DNA from: Symbiodinium natans
Lineage: Eukaryota > Sar > Dinophyceae > Suessiales > Symbiodiniaceae
DNA: 64,000 nucleotides
Assembly (NCBI GenBank): GCA_905221605.1
Contig: CAJNDS010000247.1
Coordinates: forward strand, 23,501-87,500
Direction: 5' to 3'
Part shown: one piece after another, positions 41,755 to 50,090 of the stretch
Layout of the letters: the number at the start of each line of letters is the position of its first letter
Numbering within the stretch: position 1 is the stretch's first letter
Made by a program: the position numbers and the translations under genes
Notes under the pieces: generated by a model
The model's input: the letters and a program-made list of their open reading frames with translations, nothing else
The model's database searches: none
What the model was told of the DNA's origin: nothing

Positions 41755-44700
41755 ATGGCTCCTCGACATGTTACTCAGAAAGCTGTAGTTCCGGTGCAAC
41801 CGCAACAGCCAAGGATTGCATTACCCGGAGTCAAGCATAGGAGCCGAGATTCGGAGGAGGAAGCGGCTGTCGAATCGGGGGAGCATGAGCATGGCACCAC
41901 TACTTGCCACCACAGTAGCAGATCTGACAGTCAGCTCTTGCAAGTCGTTCACATGTTGTTTACTTGGAGCACGCTTGAGTCGGGAATGTTGTCGTGTCCA
42001 TATGGCACACCAAGGTATTTTGCAAGCCCCCTTTAAAGCCCAAATGCATCTGCACGGAGGTTGGTTCGTGTTTTGTTGACATGGCAGCTCGATGCCCTAT
42101 GCTGTTCCAGAATCAGGAGCATGCCCTCGACGACATTGTGGAAAGAGAGAGGTCTTTGGACCAAGAGCAACTCATGGTATCCGAAGGCGGTGCTTCCTCG
42201 CCGAAGGCGGTTCCTTGGATCTTAGTCTTAGCAGCCTTAGCATTGAGGGTCAGAGTGCGAACCAGAGTTAGCGACGGTGGAGGAATGCGTTGAAAACGAG
42301 CAGGTGGTCAATCGCTGGTTTGACAATACCATTGTGTCAAGTCCAAGTAGAAGGGCAGCCATCAGTAGCAGTGGGCTTTACCACCTTTTTGGGTCCTGCC
42401 GCTGGAGTGCGAGGCTGACGACGCAGCTCTGATACCCTTCAAAACACCGGCAGAAGTCTGCTTGGTAGATCCAAGTTGGACGAGCAAACTTGTCTGGGAC
42501 ATCTACGTGATGTGCTGGACTCAGCTGCACATGCCATCATGCCTGCAGTAGTATTGCGACGCAGGCTGGCCAAGATGTAGGGGTGTGAGGTCATCACTGC
42601 TGCCGTGCTATGCTTCATGACAGGCTCGTGGTGCTGATGGATGCCATGGTGCTGCCTTTCCAGCTGTCATTCAAGAACGGCCACTTGCCTTTCGCGGAGT
42701 TTGGTAAACCCAGTCTGCAAGTGTCGAGGCAAGGAGCACTCTTGCACGCCCCAAGAACACACAGTTTTCGCTCGCCATGATGTGCCCTAGGACTGAACCC
42801 GGATGGTTTTGACGACTTCTGGTTCTGGCTCACAACTATGACCTTCAGTGCCGACGCCCTCCTGCAAGTGTCGCACGTATGACCCACCTAAACTCCGGTC
42901 AACCCACGGGTGCATGCTTGATGCCTTGACTCAAAGGCGTCAGGCAACCACAGCTGTGCATTCCGCAAGGTGGCGCGCGCGTCGCGGTGGCGCGTCGCGG
43001 TGGCGCGGCGCTAGTCTTTCAACCCTGACATGGTGCATCAGTCTCCAACACGCATCTTGAGCATCGACCACGGGCCCTTCGGCCTTCAACGTGAGCATCA
43101 TGAGCATCAGACGCATCCCACGACCAAGCCGGGCTCAGTGCCAGCTTGTGCTTGGCTTTCAGACCAGGGGTTCAAAGTCTCTTGAGTGCGGCCCTCGGGA
43201 TGTTTCAGGCCAAGGCGTGCTGCGATCAACCCGTAGCGAGATTCAGGGCTGGAGTGCTGCCTTCATTCAGAACCCCAGTGCGGGTAGGTTGCAAGACTAC
43301 GGAAGAGCAGTTGCAGGTTCCTCAGCTGGCAAAGACTCATAAGCATCGTGCGCTGGTCAAGGAAATGCCTTCGGGGCTCTGGACGCGATGCAAATGTGTC
43401 GCCCGCATGGCACGGCGCTGCGACAGCACGCGAAGCATCGCGAAGCGCAGTTCGCTGTGTAGGGGTCTTCAGATGGATGAAGATTGCAAACCGAAGAGCC
43501 CGAAACCTTGATGACCTTGGTTTCGTGCTTGTAGCAGTAGGCTGACATGGTGCGCGCTAGTGATTTGGCGTGGACGTGGCTTTTGCCTTTCCGTATATGA
43601 GGCATCACCCAAGACTGCCGCATGGCGTCCAGTTCCGGGAATTGAATGTCCGCCCATCTAGAGCAGCCAAGAGCTGAGGATATTCTCGCCAGCTTTAACA
43701 CAGCCATCCCTCGTGGTGACGATGTTGACGTGGATGATGCCAAGGCCCACAGCTCACGATCTAGGGTGGATATGGGTTGATGTTGCCTCGCAGTCGCGAT
43801 GAGCAAAGGGCGGTCTGGGGTTAGGGAAGGGTTTGGAAGCGCATGGGAAGTCGACTGCTGTGGCCCCTGCAAGGAGGCTCTCATTGTCGAACGACGGGTC
43901 ATTGCCGTCACGTACCTCAGAGGTTGGTTCGTGCTCGACTTCGTGAGTACCGTACCCTGGAGCCGGATAGCCGCCCGACTTCACGCAACGCATTAAACGT
44001 GGCCCACACTGGGCACATTCTACTTGAGAGCAGGGTGCGGATGGGTTCTGCCTTCTCCATGTTTGCCGAGGTTGACAGCATGGTGGGACCTGGTGGTGGG
44101 CCCATGGTGACTGTGGCGAAACTTGCCAAAGTGTGTTCTGGCCAGCAATCCTGGACCTCGCGTGCAGGTTGTAGTCTGTTATAGTGATGCGTTGGAAAAA
44201 CAGTGCATCAAGCCACCTAAGGTTGAAGTTCATTCGCATTATCCGTTTAATGAAGATGCTTCGCGCCAAGAAGCTCAAAGACATCTGGGAGCAAGTGGAA
44301 AGACGAATTGGTTCGGTTGCCATCGTGCAGGGCATGATGCTGATCCGAGTGCTGCTGGTTGTGGTGGGGATTTGCCACTGGAACGCCTGCCTTTTTTGGA
44401 TTGTCGGGGCGACTGACAGCATTGTCACAGATTTCCTGCCCACGCCGAGAGCTGAGCCTTCTCCCTTGGGGAGACCTTGACACATGCAGATGTCCGGGAA
44501 GTTTCCTACTGTGGTAGCTATCTGACGGGACTTTGGCTGCTAGGTCCTTGAAAGAGCAGTTCGACAGTATGCCGCATTGGACGACCACCTCAAGGATATT
44601 CTTCCTCGCAAAAGTGCGCTTTCTTTTTCCGCTAGGAGGCCTCCGCAAGCTTTGCACTTGGCAGGAGCAACGCCCCGGATCTAGAAACCTGGAACTACGC

Positions 44701-45684
44701 AAGCAAGCCCATGCCCGGGCCACAGCCCTCTCTGAAGAGTGGGGGGGGGGGGGGGGGAAGGGGCATTTTGTTGGAGTTGTTCCTGTCCTGAAGGTTTGAG
44801 CAGTACATTTTCTGCTTCTACTGGACTCTCGGGGTCATGCGGACAATGCCCGCTGAAGTGACCCCAGTGAATGTCGTGGAGCGCGACTTGCCTGCTCTCT
44901 GCATCTCTTGCTGTAGTCTTAGCAGTGACACGAGACACTGCGCACGAAGCACCGCAGTCCCCAGCTGAGGCGTGTTTGTTCTCTGCTTTATGTTTTTCGC
45001 CTTATCTGCATTCGCGGTGTCGGTTGCCTCCCTTACGCAAGCCTACTTCAAAATCAGCTCCTTGGACTACATCAGCTCTTGTTGCCTTTTGATGGCAGGG
45101 GTCAGTGATCACTCAAGACCATTGCTGGCACCTGTAGCTGCTCGTCACACTACGTCCTGAAGCCTTAGCTCCTAAACGTGCATCCTCACCTCCTTGTGCC
45201 AGAGAGTCGAAACCTACAATTGCATGGCTTTTTCAAGGACACAGTTCGACTAGTGTACCAAAGCAAACAACAGAAGCACACCTCTCCTACGGCGAGGTGA
45301 GCGGGGCCGGAGCTTTAACGACGAGATGTTCGCCATCCGCATGCACCTCCACAAGCTTCGCATGGAGGAAACGTCCCAGCGGAAGATCAAGGACCCTTAG
45401 TGGGGTATGGTTGGTTCAGGCTCAAGCCTAGAATGTGCTGGAGACACGTGCCGTGCCAGCGGGGCTGTCTCAGGAATATCTCCACCACAAGTTCACACGA
45501 AGACGGATTATGGCCAAGGAGGCCAGACATTGTTATTGTTGAAAGCAGTCTGCCAGCCTGCCGGCCCAATCCAAACACACATTTCTGGGCCTGATCTCCA
45601 CTTGAAGGATCTCCACTTGAAGTCCACGTAGCTCATACTTAGTCATAGAATATAAAATTAATATATAATACTTATATTGTACAT

Positions 45685-45719
<35 letters not shown>

Positions 45720-48220
45720 ATATATATAGTATATAAAATATAACATATAACATATAATATATAATATATAATGTATTATATATAACATATAACATATAAT
45801 ATATGATATATAATATATAATATACAATATATAATATATAATATATAATATGTTATAAGATATTATATACAATAAATAATATATAATACATAGTACTTCC
45901 GGGAGAACAGTTCTAAAGTTGGTCTGACCGGGTCCTCTTCTCGCAGCCTCGAGGCGAACCTTCTCAAGGAGCTTCCGCCAGCTCTGAAGGATGAGGTGGA
46001 GACTGCAAAAGTACTCCAGCAGGTGCACCACCTTCCATGCACCTTTTTTCGCATTTTGGGCATTTTGGGGGCTTGCGAATCACGGGGGGGGGGGGGACCT
46101 GGGATATGACGAGCCCCGAATAGTAGGATCCTCTGGTCAAGAAGGACCCTAATAAGGTACCTCCTAACATCTTCAGCCCCCATGCGTGTCCCTGGGAGCC
46201 ACGACGGTCCAGCAGACGTGAAGAAAAGCACGAGCACATTGATTTTGGCGTGGCAGAGCAAAGACTAAGGCATGTCAGCCTTGTCCAAGGACGCGGTCAA
46301 GCAGGTCTGCAAGGGTTTCTCGGAATGGAGCAGGCAGATTTCGATCAAGTTGTCATTTTCGCTGCTGTTGAGGCGGAACTGGGTGTTATTTATCATGTTT
46401 GTTTTGCTTGTTTTCCCCTCACTCCTTCCTTGTTCTAGATTCTCAGTGGTGTCTTCTTGACGCGAAGGGGTTTTCCGTTCGTCTCGCTGTTTTTCGCTTC
46501 CTCCATCATATGGTGAGTTCTCCAAATGATGGTCCCTTTTTGAGTACCCTAAAAGGGGCCACCTCATAATAGGTAAGCAGGAGACCATAATTCAGAGAAG
46601 TGACCAGACTTCCCCGATCCGTTATTCTCGTCCCCACTTTCCTCAATCCCACACCACCACCTGCACATCCCTCAGGGAGCCCTTGACCCCTTGGTTAAGG
46701 AATATACCCGCAAAATGCCGTACAAAATGGAACCGGAACATGATTATTGGTGGTATACAGGGCTCTCTGTGCAAGCCACCCACACCCCCACGCCACCAAC
46801 ACCATTCCAGTCTGAGCAGAAGGTGTTTAGGGTTTAGGAGTTTAGGAAAAAGGGCTTAGGGTTTAGGGTGTATATTTGCGGGCTTGAGCCAACAAAACGG
46901 TGCCAGCATGGGCAAAAAAAAACTTGCAGGAGCACCGAGTAGAAGAGCAAATCGCAGTCCAGTGAGGCGTTCGCCCAGCCAAGGTGCAGAATTCCTTGAC
47001 ATCTTGCCGGGCGAACATCTCGTCAACGCTGGAGATGAAGCACCCTCAGTTCGTGGGAACTACCAGTATATGGCAGTTCGTGGGAACTACACCAGTATAT
47101 GGCAGTTCGTGGGAACATGTGGGAACTACCAGTATGTGGCAGTGCATCAAAGCCTCATAGCCGAGGTCGCAACCTGTGCTTGGATCGTCTGCTCGGGGAC
47201 ACTTGACTGACCAAGTCACCCTAATCAGGGTTTAGGGTTTAGGGTTTAGGGTTTAGGGGGGCTTGCAGGGCGGCCTTGGCTCAGAGGGGATGTTATCGAG
47301 GCGGGCGAAGTCTCTTGGAAAAGGGTTTAGGGTTTAGGGTTTTTGCAAGGAGTCCAGTTGCAAAAAGGGTTTTTGCAGAGAGGTCCCAGTAAACCATGCG
47401 CCGAGTGACTTCATGTCAGCCGTGCGGGAGCGGAACAAAAAACCCCTGAACAGCAGCTGCACGAAGCCCCCAGCAACCCGCTCATCTTGAGGACCATCAA
47501 AGTGGAGGATGCCCAGGGCCCGAAGCCCAGTGATGTCTATAAGAACACAGTAATATAGTCGTAGTAGAAATACAATTATATACAACTGTAAGTATATTAA
47601 GCGAGTAATTGTAAACGCTTGCGCGCGCGCCGCCTCGGCATCCGGGCATTTGCGGAGGCACAGAATCCTGTGTCTCCGCCCCTGCCACACCCTGGAGTTG
47701 CTCACCAGGTTTGTGCCGTCTGGTGTGCGATGCCCGCGAGCGATCGCCGTTGTCTGCCGGCCCACGGACAGGAAAGGAGGTTTCTGGGAAGGGCCTCAAC
47801 AAAGGGGAGGGGGGGGGGGTTCCAGAGAAGGGTCTCAGTGGTCCCAGGGAGGTATCAGGGGGTTCCCAGGTGCCAGGGCGTTTTAGAGGGGTCCCAGACT
47901 TTTTGAGCGCCCGGGTGCGACACATTATTTGGGGGTTCGGGGGGAAGGAGCTGCTTGTTCCAAACGCTTCTCGGCAGGAAGCCCAGGCGAATATCATAAT
48001 GTCAAAATAAAGCGATATCTATTTTTTATCTACAAACATATAAATAAAGAAAATCATGGAAACCATGGTAGAGCTGCGCGCACGTGATTGTTTTCGTTGC
48101 AGGGCAGAAATGCGTCGTGGAGGGTGACCCGCCAGTGATCAATGGAGAATGCCTTCTCACAGAGGACAGCTTGTCACACACAGAGTGCAGTTCCGCGCAG
48201 CCATTGCTGAAATTGCTAGA
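41755..48220 (+). CDS. six-TM voltage/cyclic-nucleotide-type cation channel with aberrant pore
   Basis: Resembles the EAG/HCN/CNG superfamily. Inferred exons: possible N-terminus at 41755 to about 41890 (MAPRHVTQKAVVPVQPQQP) and about 42251-42370; 42427-42523 (KLVWDIYVMCWT, start of S1); 42624-42679 (VVLMDAMVLPFQLSFKN); 42791-42867 (FDDFWFWLTTMTFSADAL, S2); 43679-43729 (DILASFNTAIP); 43874 to about 43969 (YLRGWFVLDFVSTVPW, S3); about 44206-44440 (S4 LKFIRIIRLMKMLRAKKL with a basic residue every third position, then S5 IRVLLVVVGICHWNACLF); 44544 to about 44589; 44794-44882 (pore, YIFCFYWTLGVMRTMPAEV); 44970-45056 (S6); 45297-45391 and 45947-46010 (C-linker, LLKELPPALKDEV); 46990-47048 (ILPGEHLVNAGDEAPS) and 48103 to about 48190 (INGECLLTED), the last two resembling a cyclic-nucleotide-binding domain. 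The filter reads TMPAEVTP, with no GYG. Several donors are GC. S3-S4 junction and end are uncertain. An exon with a stop at 48658-48777 may be the tail. Confidence 0.86.
45640..45900. repeat. (ATAT/AATATA)n AT-rich satellite in channel intron
   Basis: About 260 bp of ATATAATATATA-type sequence inside the intron between the two C-linker exons, ending about 50 bp before the next acceptor. Confidence 0.93.
46083..46182. mobile_element. MITE, family 2, copy with poly-G head
   Basis: A G run (46085-46097), then GAGCCCCGAATAGTAGGATC, GAAGGACCCTAATAAGGTAC and CAGCCCCCATG. Same block order as 35296. Confidence 0.72.
46512..46605. mobile_element. MITE, family 3, copy in channel intron
   Basis: CCAAATGATGGTCCCTTTTT near the left end and GACCATAATTCAGAGAAGTG near the right, with GTACCCTAAAAGGGGCCACC between. 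Related to 39931 and 55516. Confidence 0.68.
46669..46770. mobile_element. palindromic MITE, family 1, copy F (diverged)
   Basis: GGGAGCCCTTGACCCCTTGG then TTAAGGAATATACC, and right end GGTATACAGGGCTCTCTG. The central AT core has diverged. Confidence 0.7.
46827..46872 (+). repeat. degenerate telomere-type block
   Basis: TTTAGGGTTTAGGAGTTTAG then AAAAAGGGCTTAGGGTTTAG: about five units with interruptions, in the same intron as three MITEs. Confidence 0.85.
47048..47140 (+). repeat. three-unit tandem repeat at an exon end
   Basis: Units AGTTCGTGGGAACTACCAGT+ATATGGC at 47048-47074 (27 bp), 47075-47103 (29 bp) and 47104-47140 (37 bp). The first begins at the predicted donor of the channel's CNBD-like exon, so the donor context AGTTCGTGGGAAC is present three times. 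Confidence 0.9.
47225..47345 (+). repeat. two short telomere-type blocks
   Basis: About four TTTAGGG units at 47228-47257 and two at 47323-47341, within the putative last intron region of the channel gene. Confidence 0.9.
47346..48100. other. intronic or spacer sequence, G-rich
   Basis: Contains a duplicated GGGTTTTTGCA segment (47333 and 47367), a G run at 47808-47818 and GGTCCCAG/GGTTCCAG-like iterated segments at 47818-47900. No exon recognised. Confidence 0.4.
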
Positions 48221-48229
48221 CCTTGTTGC

Positions 48230-50090
48230 TTACAAAATCCATGGAACAGGAACCGCATCGATCACCCACCACTGTCACAACCACGAGCACCTGCCACGAG
48301 ATTGCACGCAGCGTTGAGTTGTCGCAGATCATTTTTTTGACAGAAAACTACCCATGCTGATCAGGTGAGCTTTACAAGCTAGAGAAGACGAAGTTCTTCG
48401 AAATTGCAGCCCACCATCTGACACTCCTCGCAAATTTATTGTTCATGTCTCAAAAGCTTGTGTTCCGCGGCACAGATGGATGCAACTTGGGAGGGGGGGG
48501 GGGGGGCAGGACAGCCCAGTAATTCCAAGTTTTGCCAGGAAGCCAAAAGAGTTCAAAATGCGACGTCAGCATTCCGGGCCGACTGCGATCAATGTCATCT
48601 ACTCAGTATTTTTCCACGTTGACCACTGACCTGAACCCCAAAAAGCAACATCATGCCGGCACAAGATGCAATGTTTGCAAAAACCGTGGTTGGCGGCATT
48701 GAGGTGGAAGAAGCGACAGACCGGGTCACAACGCCTCATGCCTCGGCTGGCGCAGCAGCTGCAATCTCAGCTGGCTAAGAGTTTTTGGTTTCACGTTCGA
48801 TGAAGCGGCCAAGGCCGCCATAGGGTTTGGGCATGCTTCACATATCCCCACATGGCCTGCGCAACACGCGCGTGTCAAAGTGCCTGGGGCTCGAGGGATG
48901 CTCTCCAGGCGCAAGGCAAGCGCATGTGGTTCCATTTGCAAAAGTCGTTGTAAGTTTCCACAGCTTGTGTTGGTTGTGCATGGCCATGTGGAGCATGCAC
49001 GCAGAACTGCTCTGAACATCAGCTTGAATCCGGATCAGCCCTCTTCCGCAGTCGTCGCATTCTAAAACGTCGTGCAGTATAACCGTACAACATCTTACAA
49101 CGTTAGTTACCACTTGTCGACTTGCTACGGTGGAAGATAGGTTCGCCAGTTGCAAGCAGCCGCGGGTAGTGGGAGATTCTTAAAGCTTTCAGCCTTGAGT
49201 TTGGAACATATAGCACACCGCGGCTTGCAACTGACAGTGCGCACGGCAGAAGTGGCAGGAACAAAGCGATTCTTGCCCAACCATGCTTGTGCTGGCGTGC
49301 AAATCAACAAGTTGAGCCGATTGTCAGGATGTCGGATGTTGAGTTTTATGAAGGGGCAACCTCAGCATCGTTTTGGCAAGCAGCTCACTTGAAACGTGCG
49401 TGTGACAATCACACAGACACAATCATGGCCGACTTTTTCACCATCGCAACTTGATCTTTTGGCTCATTAGAATGAGCCGGCTTACCCGCCATGAATCGAC
49501 GCTGGCAGCTTCAGTTCAACAATGACATGATGATGTAGGTGTAAGGTCCAGGTAGCAGTTTTGTATCAGTCAGCTGTGTTGCCCGATGCCCGGGATGCCG
49601 TTCAACTCGTCATTCTCGGACATGCAGCAGGGACTTGCAATGAATGCGTTTTTACAGCGGTTGTTGATTCCTGACAAAGTAGTGAAGTGAAGCTGTGACA
49701 AAAAGGAGAACGTGTTGTCTTCAGTTGTTCTGCGACTCGGTGCAAGCAGAGAAGCAAAGGATGGTGGCAAGACCCGTTCCGGTTAGAAAGTCAGTGTCGC
49801 AGGCGTTGTTCGATTTCCTTCCCGTCAAGACGGCAGACGGCCAACAGGCCTTCCTTCCTCGGCCTGGAGGCCATCGGAATTGTGCTTTAGGGATTTGGTG
49901 TGTAACATGTCCGACGTCAGCAACTCTCCATGTCCGATTTCAATGATCAAGATATGGTATATAATATATTGTATACAGTTTATCATATATAGTATACATA
50001 GTATGTAGTAGATAATGTATATTAGTAGAATGTGTAGTGCATTTTTGTCTCAAAGACGATCCTTGCACCTCCGAGTCCGAAGGCTCAAGT
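48230..50090. other. no firm gene apart from a possible channel tail exon
   Basis: The + frame 48658-48777 (AQDAMFAKTVVGGIEVEEAT … ISAG, TAA) looks like a C-terminal exon and may end the channel gene. Frames at 48838-49155 (minus) and 49150-49392 (plus) overlap antisense partners and have no motif. A G run lies at 48493-48505 and an AT-rich stretch at 49955-50030. Confidence 0.3.

What the first reader, a model, noticed from the sequence alone, without database searches (positions are those of the whole stretch)
44794..44882. Channel pore with Pro-Ala-Glu in place of the K+ filter
Seen: the exon reads YIFCFYWTLGVMRTMPAEV followed by TPVNVVER, in register with the conserved pore of K+ channels (YW…T-T-V-G-Y-G-D-x-TP), between S5 (HWNACLF) and S6. 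Gly-Tyr-Gly-Asp is replaced by Pro-Ala-Glu, one residue shorter. Known: CNG channels also lack GYG and use a Glu in the filter (TIGETPP). Inference: this is a non-K+-selective, possibly Ca2+- or Na+-permeable channel with a filter type of its own.
Basis: partly seen in the sequence, partly recalled or inferred. Interest (0 to 1): 0.82.

Follow-up and report, generated by a model that had tools for sequence, protein, structure and literature searches.

The report
Channel family with unusual ion filter
A dinoflagellate-type genome carries a small gene family of HCN/CNG-like channels in which the usual potassium filter is replaced by a different, strictly conserved sequence, which suggests these channels pass ions other than potassium alone, although nobody here has recorded from them.

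Summary
The exon at 44794-44882 reads QYIFCFYWTLGVMRTMPAEVTPVNVVER in frame, between S5 and S6 of an HCN/CNG-type channel. It is not an oddity of one gene: five further genes in the same genome carry the same pore. Across the six, 21 of 21 pore residues are identical while 16 of 21 codons differ silently. Five of six spliced models run from S1 into the C-linker without a stop and are 50-68% identical overall. No GYG-type reading lies between S5 and S6 of the window gene. The nearest in-genome relative read through the pore in one exon has an ordinary TSVGYGDISP filter. The new filter, T-M-P-A-E, is one residue shorter than a K+ filter and has the loop length of animal CNG channels (TIGE), which a published survey names as the only clade with a departed filter. 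Best reading: a subfamily of CNBD channels with its own filter, probably a non-K+-selective cation pore with a Glu ring. Permeation, expression and ligand binding are not shown, and the tree leaves single origin open. Other non-GYG pores (QFTPASME, PSPP) also occur in this genome.

The parts
42462..42511 (+). S1, first half (LVDPSWTSKLVWDIYV); the open frame starts earlier, at 42369
   Evidence: spliced alignment, donor GT; open frame
42624..42679 (+). S1, second half (MLVVLMDAMVLPFQLSFK)
42791..42847 (+). S2 (GLNPDGFDDFWFWLTTMTF)
43674..43717 (+). S2-S3 piece (TEDILASFNTA), weak exon call
43877..43969 (+). S3 (ALIVERRVIAVTYLRGWFVLDFVSTVPWSRI)
44175..44470 (+). S4 with a basic residue at every third place (KFIRIIRLMKMLRAKK) and S5 (ICHWNACLFWIVG); both edges uncertain
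   Evidence: 49% identity to C2137 over 83 columns
44794..44882 (+). pore helix and filter exon: QYIFCFYWTLGVMRTMPAEVTPVNVVE; coding frame certain from 44801
44970..45056 (+). S6 (RVFVLCFMFFALSAFAVSVASLTQAYFKI)
45297..45391 (+). start of C-linker (SERGRSFNDEMFAIRMHLHKLRMEETSQRKIK)
45474..45521 (+). C-linker (EYLHHKFTRRRIMAKE)
45954..46038 (+). C-linker end (ANLLKELPPALKDEVETAKVL..)
46270..46329 (+). probable helix before the nucleotide-binding-like domain (MSALSKDAVKQVCKGFSEW)
   Evidence: weaker
46990..47039 (+). CNBD-like strands (FLDILPGEHLVNAGDE)
   Evidence: Pfam does not call the joined CNBD pieces
47166..47214 (+). CNBD-like strand (VATCAWIVCSGTL); 3' edge not resolved, the aligned stretch runs into a stop
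   Evidence: similar exons in paralogues
48365..48405 (+). CNBD-like end (CELYKLEKTKFFEI)
   Evidence: weaker

Best explanation
The gene encodes a subunit of a channel of the HCN/CNG (CNBD-channel) class with a charged S4, presumably tetrameric like its relatives. It belongs to a six-gene subfamily in which the K+ filter T-V-G-Y-G-D has become T-M-P-A-E. The Thr at the inner end of the filter is kept, both glycines and the tyrosine are gone, and the outer acid is kept as Glu, so the loop is one residue shorter. Shown: gene, class, filter and its conservation. Inferred: four such loops form a wider, rigid, proline-containing pore lined by Thr, Met, Pro and Ala carbonyls with a ring of four Glu at the outer mouth. 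This could not coordinate bare K+ as GYG does and would act like a CNG pore, passing Na+, K+ and probably Ca2+, opened by the S4 sensor and modulated through the C-linker.
For: Six genes, 21/21 identical pore residues with 16/21 codons differing silently. Synonymous differences are saturated (pS 0.70-0.76) against pN 0.23-0.35 in 10 pairs of 5 genes. Class membership comes from S1-S5 without the filter (HCN4 E 4e-15), from the window's S4 to C-linker (TAX-4 CNG E 3e-14, aligned ungapped through the filter) and from the profile of five genes (HCN4 E 8e-27). No GYG reading lies between S5 and S6 of the window gene. In-genome relatives C2302 and C1840 have TSVGYGD in the matching place.
Against: No current, structure or transcript. 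The Arg before the filter (RTMPAE) is unexplained and might pair with the Glu, taking it out of the pore. The nucleotide-binding domain is poorly resolved. Pfam Ion_trans is found in 4 of 5 spliced models but not in the window's own. The tree does not settle that the six are one clade.
Confidence: 0.6

Rival explanations
1. The subunits do not conduct by themselves. The altered loop makes a silent or modulatory subunit that assembles with GYG-bearing relatives or serves as a voltage or ligand sensor.
For: GYG-type relatives exist in the same genome. The loop holds an Arg and a Pro, unlike K+ and CNG filters. A chain of a Tetrahymena mitochondrial complex IV entry matches the channel profile (7w5z_C, E 5.7e-18; entry identified), so channel-like proteins may serve elsewhere in alveolates; its pore was not seen.
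Against: A dead pore should drift, yet the loop is identical in six genes, and S4 and S6 are kept.
Confidence: 0.22
2. The pore is narrow and selective (for Ca2+, Na+ or H+) rather than nonselective: the Glu ring acts like the EEEE ring of calcium channels.
For: Glu in the filter of every member, invariant.
Against: Loop length matches CNG, whose single Glu ring gives poor selectivity (recalled). The T-x-E-x-W loop of Nav/Cav (recalled) is not there.
Confidence: 0.15
3. The exon is a decoy: the gene is a pseudogene, or another exon supplies a K+ filter.
For: No transcript was available; the exon calls rest on permissive donor rules.
Against: No GYG-like reading between S5 and S6 in the window (0 in 681 bases). 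The other five intervals hold 2 readings, not in pore context, against 4 on the reverse strand; the C1943 interval did not reach its true S5 exon. No stop in the window model. Strong purifying selection. Same filter in six genes whose introns around the pore differ.
Confidence: 0.03

Closest known systems
Animal CNG channels (TAX-4, CNGA; filter TIGE)
   Same: S4 to C-linker similarity (E 3e-14), no GYG, a Glu in the filter, same loop length, ungapped alignment through the pore
   Different: Gly-Glu replaced by Pro-Ala-Glu; the Glu lies one place further out; Arg in place of a Thr before the filter
HCN channels (CIGYG)
   Same: best profile match over S1 to C-linker (HCN4 E 8e-27), charged S4, C-linker
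   Different: GYG absent, loop one residue shorter (HMMER alignment)
Protist CNBD channels of Pozdnyakov et al. 2020 (PMC7576140; abstract, passages, part 1 of 2 of the Results and the Methods read)
   Same: same class; dinoflagellates among the organisms
   Different: those are reported with TVGY/FG or close variants; the animal CNG clade is named as the only clade-wide exception
C2302 and C1840 genes of the same genome
   Same: S4-S6 similarity (C2302 30% identity over query 4-111); N-I-V/I-E-R after the filter
   Different: ordinary TSVGYGD filter

Membership tests
CNBD channels (HCN/CNG/KCNH class) | six transmembrane segments S1-S6 in order with a pore loop | tested here: met
   spliced models of the window and four of five paralogues; profile match over S1 to C-linker
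CNBD channels (HCN/CNG/KCNH class) | basic S4 | tested here: met
   KFIRIIRLMKMLRAKK in the window, basic residue at every third place; likewise in 3 of the 4 other models of A1, the start of S4 being unresolved in C567
CNBD channels (HCN/CNG/KCNH class) | C-linker after S6 | tested here: met
   alignment to TAX-4 and HCN runs on into the C-linker
CNBD channels (HCN/CNG/KCNH class) | cyclic nucleotide-binding domain | tested here: inconclusive
   CNBD-like pieces found by spliced alignment to a partly recalled consensus; the joined pieces give no Pfam match
K+-selective channels | T-V-G-Y/F-G filter | tested here: not met
   TMPAE in six of six genes; no GYG reading in the window's S5-S6 interval
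Animal CNG channels | TIGE filter | tested here: not met
   TMPAE; aligned ungapped with TIGEV of TAX-4
Animal CNG channels | nonselective, cyclic-nucleotide-gated cation current | not testable with these tools
   needs electrophysiology
[quoted passage not shown]
   only one repeat modelled per locus

The most novel reading that the evidence does not exclude
Dinoflagellates have used the CNBD-channel scaffold to evolve several clade-wide non-K+ filters (TMPAE here, QFTPASME and PSPP in relatives). They would form a natural series of new permeation mechanisms, and TMPAE would be a selective, Glu-ring filter unlike CNG, Nav/Cav or K+ pores.
Probability: 0.3. Interest if true: 0.85.

Novelty: new variant of a known kind. 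Interest (0 to 1): 0.66.

Why it matters
Clade-wide loss of the K+ signature in this class was reported for animal CNG channels alone among the sequences surveyed by Pozdnyakov et al. 2020 (plant CNGC is named there too, but was left out of that analysis). A second, strictly conserved solution would give a natural comparison for how a K+ pore becomes a cation pore. It would also name candidate Na+/Ca2+ entry routes in a group where, as that paper says, the physiological role of such channels is not understood. The genes are specific enough to express and record from, so the question is directly testable.

Tried and rejected
Dead ends. (1) TMPxEVTP codon patterns in viral contigs (8 matches) and, with one more residue, in prokaryote genomes (11 matches): none of the 19 reads as a channel pore in the flanking residues translated. 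(2) Profile search of viral contigs: 64 stretches matched a peptide pattern, none encodes a relative. (3) A YW..GVM pattern gave six places, one of them, C1885, not of the family; it does not read as a channel. (4) Twenty of about 150 listed Ion_trans matches were fetched (L032-L051) and scanned by regular expression for pore motifs; no CNBD-type pore turned up. (5) Two papers on Tetrahymena respiratory complexes, searched by term to explain 7w5z_C: 7W5Z is their complex IV dimer, with no mention of a cyclic-nucleotide or ion-channel subunit. (6) No structure model was made: the spliced protein is not readable letter for letter from the DNA, as the fold tool requires. (7) A genome-wide count of ordinary GYG filters and of the S6 motif did not complete, so the ratio of PAE to GYG genes is unknown.

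Rejected ideas. Assembly duplicates: silent sites are saturated and introns around the pore differ. Ascertainment: 7 of the 21 conserved pore residues were fixed by the search pattern and one more was restricted to NCN codons; the other 13 were not. The protein search (29 matches from 30 candidates; its query contained the PAE pore) found no seventh member and no other relative above 40% identity.

Weak spots. The C1943 model upstream of the pore is spurious (one stop). Its real S5 exon lies about 13 kb upstream of the pore exon, so C1943 was left out of the alignment A1 (5 of 6 genes) and of the dN/dS pairs, and its S5-S6 interval was only partly covered. The tree: against the GYG rows the six PAE genes fall on one side of a branch (support 87/90, and 80/82 with the filter masked), but the two PSPP rows and TAX-4 were not counted in that test, the fork joining C2137, C1943, the other four PAE genes and the outgroups is open, and the outgroups are long branches. 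So single origin is neither shown nor excluded; the grouping rests on sequence identity. In one search the L082 pore is split by a probable intron; I joined its pieces by eye for the tree. The spliced aligner allowed only GT, GC and GA donors, so the donor types are no free evidence; the G after AG (8 of 10 acceptors in the window) was not imposed.

Full report
What was checked. The window lies at C247:23501-87500 of an unnamed 759-Mb genome of 2543 contigs. I take it for a dinoflagellate (inference): the spliced gene model has G after AG at 8 of 10 acceptors and uses GT, GC and GA donors (2, 5 and 3 of 10), and a table row in PMC5177918 gives GC/GT/GA, GT/GC/GA and GT/GC as predominant donors of three Symbiodinium genomes (passage seen, column heads not shown). 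The aligner allowed only those three donors, so the acceptors are the freer evidence. The species is not identified.

The observation. Read from 44801 the exon gives QYIFCFYWTLGVMRTMPAEVTPVNVVER. S4-S5 lies before it and S6 after it, each in an open frame. With a query that carried an ordinary TTVGYGD filter the same exons were chosen (the last one shorter), score 664.8, while the best of 25 controls (other parts of the window, the reverse strand, a shuffled query) scored 59.2. Between S5 and S6 of the window gene no reading resembles a K+ filter (0 in 681 bases). The other five intervals hold 2 such readings, neither in pore context; the reverse strands hold 4. The C1943 interval did not reach its true S5 exon.

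The family. A codon pattern for TMPxEVTP has six matches in the genome and none for the reversed pattern. All six sit in the same protein context. A protein search with the window's S4-S6 (29 matches from 30 candidates) found the same six loci: C247 (the window), C567, C1800, C1943, C2137 and C2293. The other places matched at 40% identity or less. The best of these by E-value, C2302, runs through the pore at 30%; the one at 40%, C289, has E 0.61 and shows no filter on reading. Over FCFYWTLGVMRTMPAEVTPVN the six are identical at 21 of 21 residues, and 16 of the 21 codons differ silently. Seven of those residues were fixed by the search pattern and an eighth restricted by it; thirteen were free. 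Whole models are 50-68% identical in the ten pairs without C1943 and 43-56% in the five with it, where the C1943 model is partly wrong. Synonymous differences are saturated (pS 0.70-0.76) against pN 0.23-0.35 in ten pairs of five genes. Introns cut the pore at different places in different members. These are old duplicates under strong selection, not assembly copies. A tree of S4-S6 puts the six on one side of a branch against the GYG rows (87/90; 80/82 with the filter masked), but two PSPP relatives and TAX-4 were not counted there and the central fork is open, so a single origin is not shown.

What it is. A PDB profile search with five spliced genes is led by HCN channels (HCN4 E 8e-27, S1 to C-linker), followed by plant K+ channels, CNG and EAG. 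C2137 from S1 to the pore helix, without the filter, still finds HCN4 at E 4e-15, over S1-S5. The window's S4 to C-linker is closest to the CNG channel TAX-4 (E 3e-14), aligned without a gap through the filter. Pfam Ion_trans is found in 4 of 5 spliced models; the window's own model is the exception, although its S4-S6 piece scores 18.6 bits, below the cut-off of 25. Downstream lie CNBD-like pieces that I could only partly resolve; ligand binding cannot be told.

The filter. The nearest relative in the genome that runs through the pore in one exon, C2302, reads FYFCAYTLTSVGYGDISPKNIVER, and C1840 reads LYFCTYTMTSVGYGDIGP. Against these the family reads FYWTLGVMRTMPAEVTPVNVVER: a Thr (Ser there) and the outer acid are kept, both glycines and the tyrosine are lost, and one place is missing. 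The loop length equals that of CNG (TIGE), with the Glu one place further out. I infer a pore that cannot coordinate K+ as GYG does and that carries a ring of four Glu, hence a CNG-like, probably Ca2+-permeable cation pore. The invariant Arg before the filter is unexplained and may brace the Glu instead. Nothing here measures permeation.

Relation to what is in print. Pozdnyakov et al. 2020 (PMC7576140; abstract, passages, part 1 of 2 of the Results and the Methods) surveyed CNBD and Kv-like channels in many protists, dinoflagellates among them. They state that strong departures from TVGY/FG belong to individual channels, with the animal CNG clade as the only exception; plant CNGC was left out of their analysis. 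The strings TMPAEV, MPAEVTP, QFTPASM and RTMPAE occur in none of 5.39 million open papers searched. In the listings (6 of 6; 12 of 12; 14 of 16; 15 of 28; 15 of 264; 15 of 41) no title or abstract start reports such a filter; these are titles and abstract starts only. Subscription papers and sequence databases are not covered, so annotated copies may exist.

Wider picture. The genome holds further CNBD-like relatives with other non-GYG pores: HWSLTQFTPASME, clear in two places (C55, C524) and partial in a third (C1793), and NAPSPP/NTPSPP in two (C2107, C2499). The present family may be one of several departures from the K+ filter in this lineage.

Verdict. A real, conserved filter type in a known channel class: a new variant of a known kind. 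Existence of the family and its filter is close to certain; the nonselective-cation mechanism is a reasoned inference at about 0.6.

Noticed in passing
L083 (C55:71253-71276 -), L085 (C524:54521-54544 -), L084 (C1793:592014-592037 +): A second non-GYG pore, HWSLTQFTPASME, read clearly in C55 and C524 and partly in C1793; pattern 3 matches, reversed control 0.
   Followed up: partly
L076 (C2107:382980-383560), L079 (C2499:150390-151000): CNBD-like channels with YLHALRYVINAPSPP and YLHAMRWIVNTPSPP in the pore place; L079 matches CNGA1 in PDB at E 6e-6.
   Followed up: partly
L078 (C2453), L081 (C435): Two more relatives whose pore regions (SIHWVWTSAVDN, SLHWALSQFSG) do not read as GYG; exon ends not resolved.
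   Followed up: no
L025 (C247:17632-17997), about 5.5 kb upstream of the window's first base: An S4-S5 piece of another Ion_trans channel on the same strand, type not determined.
   Followed up: no
six loci of the PAE family: Introns cut the identical pore at different places (for example after W in C2137, before R in C2293, after TP in C1800 and C2293), so introns moved or were gained while the protein stayed fixed.
   Followed up: partly
PDB 7w5z_C: A 1471-aa chain of a Tetrahymena mitochondrial complex IV entry matches the channel profile at E 5.7e-18; its pore was not seen.
   Followed up: partly
window 45640-45900: About 260 bases of AT-rich TATA-type repeat inside an intron of the gene.
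   Followed up: no
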